Assembly (NCBI GenBank): GCA_010093605.1
Contig: MU004194.1
Location: 1,569,392-1,633,391, forward strand
Source: Lophium mytilinum
Taxonomy: Eukaryota > Ascomycota > Dothideomycetes > Mytilinidiales > Mytilinidiaceae
Direction of reading: 5' to 3'
Length of the DNA stretch: 64,000 nt
Shown here: piece after piece, positions 57,461-62,609 of the stretch
Layout of the letters: each line of letters begins with the position of its first letter
Numbering within the stretch: the first letter of the stretch is position 1
Notes under the pieces: model-generated
Databases searched by the model: none
What the model was told of the DNA's origin: nothing
Seen by the model: only the letters and a program-made list of their open reading frames with translations
Program-made: the position numbers and the translations under genes

Positions 57461-58336
57461 TTAGTCTTCTGGAACGACGCAAAGACACTCCTCTCCCGTG
57501 CCCTCATCCATCAGCTCTTCGCCATCTAGCCCGAATTCACCTCCGGTTGCATCATCTTCCGCAAGCCCTTCAACCTCAAACCCCAGCTCCAATTCTTCCT
57601 GAGCCCTCTTCTCATACATCGCCTTGTACCCATCCAGATCGTATAGCGCCCCTTTGTTGTACTGCTTATGGCTGACTTCTCCGGTCTTCTTGACTTTGAT
57701 ATGTCTCAACCGAAACGCAAAGACAAAGTCATCCGCCCCTTCGAAAGCGACATCAGTCTTCGTCGTCTGATGCCCCTCGAACTTTGGACCTCCCGCGAAA
57801 GGAACTCCGCATGGGATCGTCGCGTCAACGCCTACATGTGCGTAGATGCCATTGTCTCTCATATACGAGTTCAGCCCCGAAGCCCCCGATGCAATCATGA
57901 CTCCGGTAATCATAAAGAGCCTTTCACGAAACTTGTTGTTGATAATGTATTCTCGGACAGAATCCTCCATGACAGTCGCTCTGACATATTCCTGACTCGG
58001 CACGAAGTACCGAGTGCACATGTTCTTTGCCATCAATAGCTGGCTATCCTCGTTTTTCCAACCCACACTCACATCACCGCCGGCACCCACCACGAATTGT
58101 AGAAAGGAGCCCCACACTCCGATTCGCCCGCTCTTAGTCTTCGCATGACACGACGTCCAGTTTGTCTGATTGTGTGTATGAATAGCAGATGCTTCCAATG
58201 GCAGCGGCATGGTGTTTATCGGCTCGTCGGGCAAGGAGGGCGAGCTAATGATGCTACCGAGTCTGATCGGGCCTTCGGGGGGGCAAGTGCGAGTGGGCGC
58301 TAGGAAGTAACATGGTTTCTGCCCTGCCTTCGACAT
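57461..58336 (-). CDS. Gasdermin-like pore-forming protein candidate
   Basis: A single exon of 291 aa. After CYFLAPTRTCPPEGPIRLGS, a motif shared by an uncharacterised fungal family, the protein alternates strands and helices (WGSFLQFVVGAGGDVSVGW, FRERLFMITGVMIASGA, YAHVGVDATIPCGVPF). DDFVFAFRLRHIKVKK at residues 202-217 closely resembles the conserved strand of gasdermin pore domains (vertebrate VLAFRVRQLMV). A lysine-rich hinge and an acidic tail follow (about 245-291), which could be the short inhibitory end removed by proteolysis in fungal gasdermins. Length fits HET-Q1/RCD-1-type proteins. A subtilase gene lies 1.2 kb away. The gasdermin call rests on local pattern, size and context, not on a search; otherwise it is a conserved protein of unknown function. 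Confidence 0.6.
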   Translation of the reverse strand: MSKAGQKPCYFLAPTRTCPPEGPIRLGSIISSPSLPDEPINTMPLPLEASAIHTHNQTNWTSCHAKTKSGRIGVWGSFLQFVVGAGGDVSVGWKNEDSQLLMAKNMCTRYFVPSQEYVRATVMEDSVREYIINNKFRERLFMITGVMIASGASGLNSYMRDNGIYAHVGVDATIPCGVPFAGGPKFEGHQTTKTDVAFEGADDFVFAFRLRHIKVKKTGEVSHKQYNKGALYDLDGYKAMYEKRAQEELELGFEVEGLAEDDATGGEFGLDGEELMDEGTGEECLCVVPED

Positions 58337-58488
58337 GGCAGATCCTGGAGTCTCGTCTGAGAGTGTGGCCTTTGATTCCGCACTTCTCTCGTCACTGATC
58401 AATCAGGTTACCTAGGAGCTTGGTTTCGAGAAAGTGGTGCTCATTCTTTTTCTTGATGCTACTACGAATGGGTCAGCTCAAACGGGCA

Positions 58489-59522: not shown

Positions 59523-62500
59523 ATGAGTAGACGCCGGGCCCGATCTTGTGCTCCCGAAAGGACCGCCATCGTACGACTTGCTGAAGAAGGAGACCAGCAT
59601 AGAAAAAGTGGAAATCATAGCGAGGCTACTCAATCGTACCGTCAAGCTGCTCAGCAATTTGAAGATCTCTATGGCGCTGAAGCCCACCGAACCCTGCTAT
59701 TGAGAGATAAATTAGCTACTAGCCTTCATGATGCTGGAGACTTCAAAGGAGCTGCGTCATGCAACGAGGAAACTCTACACAGGCGACAGAAGAGCGCACC
59801 CAACGAATCATCCGAGACATACGACAAATGGCTGAAAGATGTACTGGAAAACCGAAGACGACTGGCAGTAGATTACGTTAAGCTGGAGAGGGTTTCCGAC
59901 GCCCTAACGCAATACCGAGGAGTCCTGCATGATGCAGGTTCGTCGCACTTGTCTCTGGGCCACGATGTCTTTTGTCGGGATCGGAACAATCTTGCACAGG
60001 TACTATCAAGAACAGGAGTATCACAAGATGCGAGGGAAGCAGTAGATCTAAATTTCAATACCCTGAAAACTGCGGAGGCTACACTTGGGAAGAGTCATAG
60101 AGAGGTATCGAAATCACGGTACTCACTTGGGCGGGAGCTCGCGCGACTAGGGAAAATCGACGATGCTACGGAGCATTTTCGAGACAACGTCGTCATCCTG
60201 AGTGCGCTTTCTTGGGGAGAGCGGGACAGTAGAGACCTAGAAGGCGTTTTCCAAGATTCTAAAGTCATGCTTCAGAGGTGCATGCGGAATGGCCAAGAGA
60301 CTAGAAGACCGAGAGACGAATGCAACGAAGCCGAGAAACAAGACATGGAACCTCGGACGACGAGCTCAGTAAGACATACAAACATACCCGACGAAAAGCC
60401 GCCGAATGCGATATCGCAGACAAAAGAAGTAAATCAAAAGGGAAAGAACCGGTCTGATCTAGAGCTACTTCAAGACGCTGGTCTCTCCAAAACAGCGGCT
60501 GAGAACAACAACGCAGACGGAAAAAGGGAGGATCAAACCGTCAGTACGAGTGCTTCGGAAATAAACCCAAACGAGGTATTACCAGCGAGACAGATACAGC
60601 CCGTATTAGTCGCAAAAGCCCTCGTCCCATCAGCACAAACCCAATACCACGAAGCGTCCATCAAGAACATCATTAACAAGCCTCCAAGACTGGAGGGAAA
60701 ACTTGGACAAAAATCCACGGAGCAGCAAACTAGTCTGGGTACAGGCCACCTGTTACCAACGGAAGACAGTACTCAAAAGCCGCCACAGTCTCAGGAAGTC
60801 ATTCGCAAGAAACAGCTTGATGATCCAAACTCGGCCCTCGAGTCAAACACCGATAAACTTTCCATTGACAAACGAGAGACAATTCCCAGACTAGCATCAC
60901 CCAAACAGTCACCTCTCCTGGAAATCAAAGCGGCACCAACTTCCGGAGACCTCCCGCTACTTGATACCCTTCAGGGAGCCAGTGTCGGGCCCCTGACCCA
61001 TGAACCGGGAGATGAGAAAAAGCCCAGCCGATCAGACAGCGTCGTCTCCACACCTGTACCAACCATCGTGGAGCCAATCGAACGTAGCTCAGATCTTGGA
61101 AATCTTGTCGACGACTTAACTCCCGCTATTAGCACCCCATTGCTCCATCTCTCCGTGCCAGATGTTTCTGAACCCAGCAATATACCTGGAGGTTGGAAGG
61201 CCGAATATGAGGCCGAAGATGATCCTCCCGGGATTTTTGAGTCTTTCAAGCCTCTCAGGCAAGCAAGATCCACTGCTAATCTAAGACCTTCCAACCTTCA
61301 CCTCGATTTCGCAGGCAGACCAAGCCGATCTTTGTCGGTGTCGAACCTGAGGCCTCGAAACCAATCGCATTCGCGATCTTCCAGCATTTCGCGCTCCTGT
61401 GTTGGACATGACAGAGGGTGAGTACTACTGGAAAGCTTTTCGTACCTGCGGCTAATAAAACTTAGAGCGGACCTTGCGGATAAATGGTTCCAAGACCTAG
61501 AAAAAGACACACACCCGATGCTTGAAAAGTACAGCAATTTCACACCCGATGCCGATGGTAAGAAAACTTACAAGCATGTCAAAATCGCAATACTAGACTC
61601 CGGTGTGGCACGGAAGGCGGACAAAAGAAGTGGAGAGAACAATATACCGTCCACGATTCAGCTTGCACGACCCCATATCAAAGAAGGAAAAATGAAGGGT
61701 GTGTCCGGCACTTTACCCTGGGACGAGGATGTCATTGGTCATGGCACTCACGGGGTCGGTCTTTTACTGAAAGTTTGCCCCTGGGCCGATATCTATGTGT
61801 ATCGGGTCATCGAAAGCCAGCTGGGGTCTATCCGCCAAGACCTCGTAGCAGCAGCGATAGAGGATGCAGCCGGCAAAGTTGACATCATTTCAATGTCCTT
61901 GGGATGGGAGCGAGACGACCCGCAGGTTGGTGAAGCCCTTGAACGCGCCAAGAAGAAAGGTGTACTGCTCTTCGCGGCTAGTTCCAACGATGGAGTCAAT
62001 GGTGGCATGTCATTTCCAGCACGAGCGGACGAGGTTATTGCAATCGACTCAGCCAACTACCACGGCGAACCATCGCCATTCAATACCCCCGAAGATGACC
62101 GAAAGCAACGATTCACTGCTCTCGGCGAAGACGTTGAATCAGCCTTTCCGCCGGCACTTCAAGGCTTGGATGACGATAGTGATGGTTTTTTGAGGGTTGG
62201 TTTCAAACGCAGTACAGGAAGTTCGTGCGCAACGCCTATCGCCGCGGCGACTGCGGCGTTGATCCTAGAGTTTGCTAAACAGCCGCCGCTGTGCTACGAC
62301 CCCCGGGTGCTGAACCATCTAAAGACTCTGAAAGGGATGCGGTACGTCTTTAATGAGTTGGTTAGTCAAAAGAAGAGCCAGACGTCACGCTTCAATCACC
62401 TGAACATTAGAAACCTACTATGCTGTGACGAGGGGTATCTTGATGGTGGTGATTGGGCGGACTCTTCTTTTGCCCCTCGATATCGAGCCGCCAGGAAAAT

Positions 62501-62609
62501 TATCGACTGTCTACAACGTTTCCTTGAACCAGATTTGGGAGCGCCTATGCTTGACGAAATGAGCCGTGCAACTCGCAAGATGTTTGAAAGAAAGTCAACT
62601 TGGACCTAG
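59523..62609 (+). CDS. TPR-subtilase (peptidase S8) fusion protein
   Basis: Two exons (59523-61417, 61466-62609; 48-nt GTGAGT/TTAG intron) encode 1012 aa. Residues of about 15-250 form TPR/kinesin-light-chain-like helical repeats (RLAEEGDQHRKSGNHSEATQ, LATSLHDAGDFKGAASCNEE, SLGRELARLGKIDDATEHF). A Ser/Pro/Gln-rich disordered linker spans about 260-630. The C-terminal part is a subtilisin-like protease with Asp676 in KIAILDSGVA, His724 in VIGHGTHGVG, Asn806 in FAASSNDGVNGG (oxyanion hole) and Ser885 in STGSSCATPIAAA, so the active site looks complete. There is no signal peptide or prodomain and no NACHT or NB-ARC module, so it is likely a cytosolic regulated protease. Context next to a gasdermin-like gene suggests the role of HET-Q2: cleaving the pore former. 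Confidence 0.88.

What the first reader, a model, noticed from the sequence alone, without database searches (positions are those of the whole stretch)
57461..62609. Candidate gasdermin-protease cell-death module
Seen: a 291-aa protein with FVFAFRLRHIKV, a lysine-rich hinge and an acidic tail, next to a subtilase with an apparently complete triad and N-terminal TPR-like repeats. Known: in Podospora anserina het-Q1 encodes a gasdermin-like protein and het-Q2 a subtilisin-like protease that cleaves it to trigger incompatibility death, and fungal gasdermin genes are often beside protease genes. Inference: this is the same logic with a TPR-bearing, NACHT-less protease. If right, the locus is a self-contained pyroptosis-like system.
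Basis: partly seen in the sequence, partly recalled or inferred. Interest (0 to 1): 0.92.

Follow-up and report, generated by a model that had tools for sequence, protein, structure and literature searches.

The report
Fungal gasdermin with partner protease
A mould carries side by side the gene for a membrane-piercing suicide protein and the gene for the cutting enzyme that probably switches it on, a pairing already described as common in fungi.

Summary
The 291-aa protein is a fungal gasdermin. Alone it matches the solved Neurospora RCD-1 proteins (E 1.2e-5). A 54-sequence profile matches RCD-1 (7e-24) and HET-Q1 (1e-14), and only gasdermins up to E 10. Its predicted fold is a gasdermin pore domain, best matched by RCD-1. 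The neighbouring gene encodes a 1012-aa protein: TPR array, disordered linker, S8 subtilase with intact triad. The protein is identical to a Lophium mytilinum record. I found four gasdermin-like genes in this genome; all four lie within 1.2 kb of a protease gene (three S8, one CHAT). Three were found without regard to neighbours. Eleven of 14 S8 loci show no gasdermin nearby. Reviews already describe gasdermin-protease two-gene clusters, including TPR-fused proteases. Cleavage, pore formation and trigger are inferred, not shown. Conservation of this exact pair could not be established: the nearest relatives of each partner lie in different species. Verdict: new member of a known kind.

The parts
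57461..58336 (-). Fungal gasdermin gene, 291 aa, single exon
57635..57655 (-). Codons of KGALYDL (residues 228-234) in the hinge; conserved KGA-L-[F/Y/L/M] motif, candidate activation-cleavage region (inferred)
   Evidence: K 72%, G 93%, A 96%, and Phe, Tyr, Leu or Met at position 232 in 54 sequences; low-confidence hinge in the model, block means 60, 59, 56 for residues 231-260
57464..57610 (-). Acidic C-terminal tail, residues 243-291, net charge -16; candidate short inhibitory segment (inferred)
   Evidence: 52 of 54 aligned sequences have a net charge of -5 or below after the motif
58489..59109 (-). 206-aa ORF with one predicted transmembrane segment (residues 70-88) and an S/T/P-rich N part; role unknown
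   Evidence: no Pfam match up to E 1; no second copy found in the genome up to E 10
59523..61417 (+). Protease gene exon 1: TPR array (about residues 11-272, 59553-60338) and disordered linker (about residues 273-627)
   Evidence: Pfam TPR_12 E 7.2e-10; model helices 62-323 in P0059 numbering (51 higher), segment 315-679 under pLDDT 50
61418..61465 (+). 48-bp intron, GT..AG
   Evidence: spliced protein identical to public record P0059 from its residue 52
61466..62609 (+). Protease gene exon 2: S8 subtilase domain; D676 at 61596, H724 at 61740, N806 at 61986, S885 at 62223
   Evidence: Pfam PF00082 E 5.9e-21; PDB subtilases E down to 2.1e-14; catalytic residues the same in 22 of 22 aligned sequences

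Best explanation
This is a fungal gasdermin-protease two-gene cluster in Lophium mytilinum. The gasdermin is made as a dormant 291-aa protein held inactive by its acidic C-terminal tail (inferred). The TPR part of the neighbouring 1012-aa protein senses or scaffolds onto an unknown cue and releases its S8 subtilase domain (inferred). The subtilase cuts the gasdermin hinge, plausibly near the conserved KGAL(F/Y) motif, and removes the tail (inferred from HET-Q1). The freed N-domain assembles pores in the plasma membrane and kills the compartment, as defence or nonself response (inferred). Shown here: homology, fold, intact catalytic residues, gene adjacency and recurrent linkage within the genome.
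For: Gasdermin identity: phmmer to RCD-1-2 and RCD-1-1, E 1.2e-5 and 4.6e-5. Profile to RCD-1 6.8e-24 and HET-Q1 pore 9uv9 1e-14; all six solved sequences listed up to E 10 are gasdermins. Fold: the ten best VIA rows and the 18 best Foldseek rows are gasdermins, RCD-1 first. Protease identity. Linkage in the genome: 4 of 4 gasdermin-like genes found lie within 1.2 kb of a protease gene, while 11 of 14 S8 loci and 2 of 3 CHAT loci show no gasdermin match in the stretches scanned. For the three found without regard to neighbours, chance placement within 1.2 kb of one of 17 protease loci is about 1e-8 under uniform placement. Another species: Phialocephala PAC_10212 (gasdermin, P0153) and PAC_10213 (S8, P0107) have consecutive tags and the same longest-contig length. 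Mechanism by analogy: HET-Q2 cleaves HET-Q1 at F238, removing 40 residues, and a TPR-bearing CHAT protease activates a clustered gasdermin (PMC10989679 and PMC12881547, passages).
Against: No activity was tested. The closest relatives of the gasdermin (Mytilinidion, Lineolata, Setomelanomma among the named ones) and of the protease (Alternaria, Westerdykella, Neofusicoccum) come from different species. Of six other named organisms present in both hit lists, one shows adjacent tags and five do not (lists incomplete). So this exact partnership is not shown to be conserved. The gasdermin matches no Pfam family up to E 1. Of the three other gasdermin-like genes, C7 is weak on its own: its best solved match is an unrelated protein at E 0.29, with RCD-1-2 at 0.42, so it rests on the family profile (1.5e-10); C8 too (2.6e-7). 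A 206-aa ORF separates the two genes, which diverge.
Confidence: 0.85

Rival explanations
1. The gasdermin is real, but acts in the RCD-1 way: it is switched on when two divergent alleles meet after fusion, and the protease next door is not its activator.
For: RCD-1 is the closest solved relative, and RCD-1 is triggered by co-existence of two allelic variants, not proteolysis (PMC12881547, passages).
Against: The N. crassa RCD-1 proteins are 257 and 244 aa, whereas this family has a segment of median 59 residues after the KGAL motif, acidic in 52 of 54. The protease linkage recurs at three more loci in the genome.
Confidence: 0.06
2. The two genes are neighbours by chance; the TPR-subtilase is an unrelated regulatory protease.
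For: Nearest relatives of the two partners come from different species in the lists obtained. The genes are divergent and separated by a third ORF.
Against: All four gasdermin-like genes found lie beside proteases, while 11 of 14 S8 loci show none; about 1e-8 by chance for the three found genome-wide. Reviews report about 80% of fungal gasdermin genes within 10 kb of a protease gene.
Confidence: 0.05
3. The ORF between the two genes is a third working part: a single-pass membrane protein that senses the surface or tethers the gasdermin, or is spliced to it.
For: It lies 152 bp upstream of the gasdermin on the same strand and has one predicted transmembrane segment. The gasdermin frame is open for 22 codons upstream of its ATG.
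Against: 51 of 54 aligned gasdermins begin at about the same point, with no room for such a domain; three have longer starts of 35, 68 and 84 residues before the conserved Tyr. No signal-peptide-like start was seen by eye in the frames printed upstream. No Pfam match, and no second copy found in the genome.
Confidence: 0.04

Closest known systems
HET-Q1 / HET-Q2 of Podospora anserina (fungal gasdermin and S8 protease)
   Same: Gasdermin of similar length (291 versus 278 aa) with a short C-terminal extension, and a subtilisin-like S8 protease as presumed activator (PMC10989679 passages; profile match to the HET-Q1 pore 9uv9)
   Different: het-Q1 and het-Q2 are idiomorphs; here both genes are in one genome. 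HET-Q2 is 388 aa; this protease is 1012 aa with TPRs and a long linker
Q2-like (Q2L) protease - gasdermin two-gene clusters of fungi (Clave et al. 2022, described in PMC10197012, PMC12881547 and PMC10989679)
   Same: Gasdermin gene near an S8 protease gene; protease domain fused to repeats such as TPR, WD40 or ANK
   Different: No difference in kind seen. Whether this exact TPR-linker-S8 order was catalogued could not be read: the original paper is not held
RCD-1-1 / RCD-1-2 of Neurospora crassa
   Different: RCD-1 is triggered by allelic co-existence, not proteolysis, and is shorter: 257 and 244 aa
Bacterial gasdermin-protease clusters
   Different: Bacterial; sequence similarity near the noise (profile E 0.22 to 7n51)

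Membership tests
Fungal gasdermins (RCD-1 / HET-Q1 family) | Sequence homology to RCD-1 and HET-Q1 over the pore-forming domain | tested here: met
   shuffle and reversal controls
Fungal gasdermins (RCD-1 / HET-Q1 family) | Gasdermin pore-forming fold | tested here: met
   first ten VIA rows and first 18 Foldseek rows are gasdermins; model mean pLDDT 83.2
Fungal gasdermins (RCD-1 / HET-Q1 family) | Short C-terminal segment that inhibits and is cut off | tested here: inconclusive
   An acidic tail of fitting size is present and conserved in charge; inhibition and cutting were not tested
Fungal gasdermins (RCD-1 / HET-Q1 family) | Membrane targeting, oligomer pores, cell death | not testable with these tools
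   needs expression
Q2-like proteases of gasdermin clusters | S8 (or CHAT) protease domain with intact catalytic residues | tested here: met
   PF00082 E 5.9e-21; D676, H724, N806, S885 the same in 22 of 22 aligned sequences
Q2-like proteases of gasdermin clusters | Gene within 10 kb of a fungal gasdermin gene | tested here: met
   58336 to 59523, 1186 bp between
Q2-like proteases of gasdermin clusters | Cleaves the neighbouring gasdermin | not testable with these tools
   needs biochemistry or co-expression
NLR-type protease receptors | Central NACHT or NB-ARC domain | tested here: inconclusive
   No such domain among Pfam matches up to E 1 in the two ORFs that make up nearly all of the protein; the stretch between TPRs and protease is modelled as disordered. 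Absence of a match is not proof
het-Q1/het-Q2 incompatibility system | Gasdermin and protease as idiomorphs (different genes at the same locus) | tested here: not met
   both genes lie on one contig 1.2 kb apart

The most novel reading that the evidence does not exclude
The cluster has three parts, not two: a surface-exposed single-pass membrane protein (the 58489-59109 ORF) passes a signal to the cytosolic TPR-subtilase, which then fires the gasdermin: a receptor-sensor-executioner cassette. [quoted passage not shown]
Probability: 0.05. Interest if true: 0.6.

Novelty: new member of a known kind. Interest (0 to 1): 0.33.

Why it matters
It adds a clean example from the Mytilinidiales to the known fungal gasdermin-protease clusters. 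One genome holds four such clusters with four apparently different sensor ends (TPR-S8, patatin upstream of S8, DUF7580 upstream of S8, CVNH-TPR-CHAT). That makes it a compact system for asking what these sensors detect, which a review calls a major open question (PMC12881547, passage). It is not a new kind of system.

Tried and rejected
Pfam: the window gasdermin matched no family up to E 1; nor did the C16 and C7 ones up to E 0.5 or P0153 up to E 1. A relative, P0172, gave only a sub-threshold match to the Gasdermin model (E 0.24, 11.3 bits against a cut-off of 25). Two relatives carry a precomputed family PF26164 whose name I did not see. In the single-sequence search up to E 10 three of six matches were gasdermin entries; the other three (E 0.62 to 0.87) were unrelated.

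Synteny in relatives: no fungal genome other than the window's own could be read with these tools. Adjacency was judged only from locus tags and contig lengths in the two hit lists (83 proteins, 120 of 151 listed). Besides Lophium, six named organisms occur in both lists. One pair is adjacent (Phialocephala); five are not (Cudoniella, Cadophora sp. M221, Mollisiaceae sp., Xylaria scruposa, Neonectria ditissima). The protease search scored only the 7995 candidates sharing most words.

Weak gasdermin matches at C5:1648353 and C10:853857 were dropped: the family profile gave no match there. A match at C1:3626543 (E 1.17) was not followed. Nine further short matches to the C8 gasdermin piece cover mainly its end, which runs into an intron, and were read as a repeat.

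The C16, C7 and C8 genes were not fully modelled. C8 was found only because its neighbourhood was scanned, so it does not enter the chance estimate. The estimate assumes uniform placement and a 3-kb gene length; the grouping of 17 S8 matches into 14 loci is mine. The stretches scanned reach about 4 to 5 kb to each side.

The species name rests on the protease record; the window's contig is 1,761,370 bases and the record's 1,765,631, so the two assemblies are not the same version or treatment.

Rows left out: alignment A1 used 54 of the 58 proteins (short fragments P0016, P0024, P0041, P0051 left out); A2 used 22 of the 83, chosen as the closest and mostly TPR-bearing.

Full report
What is there. 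The window lies in a 43-Mb genome (contig 14 of 24). The protease protein is identical, letter for letter over its 1012 residues, to a public record from Lophium mytilinum, a dothideomycete of the order Mytilinidiales. Three ORFs concern us: a 291-aa ORF on the minus strand (57461-58336), a 206-aa ORF on the minus strand (58489-59109), and a two-exon gene on the plus strand (59523-61417 and 61466-62609) encoding 1012 aa. The public model of the last one begins 51 residues earlier, so its start is uncertain.

The tail. Past the last confident strand comes a basic hinge, a conserved KGAL(F/Y/L/M) motif and an acidic tail. In 52 of 54 aligned sequences the part after the motif has a net charge of -5 or below (median -16, median length 59). 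In the model the hinge is poorly defined and the tail only moderately confident. HET-Q1 loses 40 residues from its end on cleavage at F238 (PMC10989679, passages). The tail here fits that scheme roughly in size, but its inhibitory role is inferred.

The protease. Pfam finds TPR repeats (TPR_12, E 7.2e-10) and a subtilase domain (PF00082, E 5.9e-21), and no NACHT or NB-ARC up to E 1. D676, H724, S885 and N806 are the same in 22 of 22 aligned sequences (the public copy of this protein and 21 relatives). The model (mean pLDDT 65.5) shows a helical array at 62-323, a disordered stretch at about 324-678 and a folded protease at 679-1063, in public-record numbering. Relatives in Alternaria, Neofusicoccum, Glonium and others carry TPR and S8 matches together.

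Linkage within the genome. The genome has 14 S8 loci (17 matches grouped by me) and three CHAT loci. Whole-genome protein searches found gasdermin-like genes on C14 (the window) and C16 and a weak one on C7 (E 0.003). The family profile confirmed the C7 gene (1.5e-10) and found a fourth on C8 (2.6e-7), in a scan of about 288 kb made of the fetched loci and the window. On its own the C16 protein matches RCD-1 (1.1e-7); the C7 protein does not do so convincingly (RCD-1-2 at 0.42 behind an unrelated protein at 0.29). Each gene lies beside a protease gene, with gaps of 1186 bp (C14), 44 bp (C16), 444 bp (C7) and 828 bp (C8): C14 TPR-S8; C16 an S8 with a patatin match upstream in the same direction; C8 an S8 with DUF7580 upstream; C7 a CVNH-TPR-CHAT protein, its TPR match below the curated cut-off. 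Eleven of the 14 S8 loci show no gasdermin, nor do two of the three CHAT loci. Under uniform placement, three gasdermins found without regard to neighbours would all fall within 1.2 kb of one of 17 protease loci with probability about 1e-8. Further whole-genome searches with the C7, C8 and a distant gasdermin brought no clear additional gene. Very diverged members could be missed.

Linkage in other species. Only names and contig lengths were available. Phialocephala subalpina has consecutive tags PAC_10212 (gasdermin) and PAC_10213 (DUF7580-S8), both with longest contig 1,535,309. Five other named organisms present in both lists have non-adjacent hits. The species nearest for each partner differ, so the present gasdermin and the present protease subfamily may have been paired recently, or the lists may be too short. 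This counts against a conserved pair and is not resolved.

Mechanism. Because both genes sit in one genome, the protease cannot be constitutively active against its neighbour if the gasdermin is functional (inference). The simplest model is a sensor protease: TPR array as detector, flexible linker, subtilase as trigger, gasdermin as executioner. Reviews describe this arrangement: about 80% of fungal gasdermin genes near a protease gene, about 63% S8 and 19% CHAT, and protease domains fused to TPR, WD40 or ANK repeats (PMC10197012, section 15 read; PMC12881547 and PMC10989679, passages). A TPR-bearing CHAT protease activating its clustered gasdermin in Podospora is reported there. The original paper (Clave et al. 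2022) is not held, so its list of architectures was not read. No paper in the held library names both gasdermin and Lophium mytilinum.

Verdict. The system is a new member of a described kind. The novelty that remains is small: the intervening membrane-protein ORF, and the variety of sensor ends in one genome.

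Noticed in passing
L024:2954-8443 (genome C7): A gasdermin-like gene 444 bp from a divergent 1404-aa protein with a CVNH (cyanovirin-like lectin) domain (E 3.4e-20), a weak TPR and a CHAT protease domain. One paper in the held library has both words CVNH and gasdermin; the passages seen do not link them.
   Followed up: partly
L007:2074-5519 (genome C16): A second gasdermin (36% identical) lies 44 bp from the end of an S8 protease gene, tail to tail; a patatin match (E 6e-7) lies upstream of the S8 exons. 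The usual nucleophile motif GxSxG (recalled) reads GTEWG there, so the patatin part may be inactive.
   Followed up: partly
L011:2600-6753 (genome C8): A fourth, apparently intron-bearing gasdermin-like gene directly downstream of a DUF7580-S8 protease gene on the same strand.
   Followed up: partly
56947-57257: Inverted repeat with 147-nt arms, 87% complementary, 17 nt apart, just downstream of the gasdermin; part of one arm gives 27 matches in the genome (the two arms here included), many in facing pairs: a MITE-like element.
   Followed up: partly
58489-59109: 206-aa ORF with one predicted transmembrane segment and S/T/P-rich N part, 152 bp upstream of the gasdermin; no match in Pfam up to E 1 and no second copy found in the genome.
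   Followed up: partly
55957-56520: Glutathione S-transferase-like ORF whose match lacks the start of the N-terminal domain, so probably a later exon of a longer gene.
   Followed up: no
53883-55283: Zn2Cys6 transcription-factor-like ORF on the minus strand.
   Followed up: no
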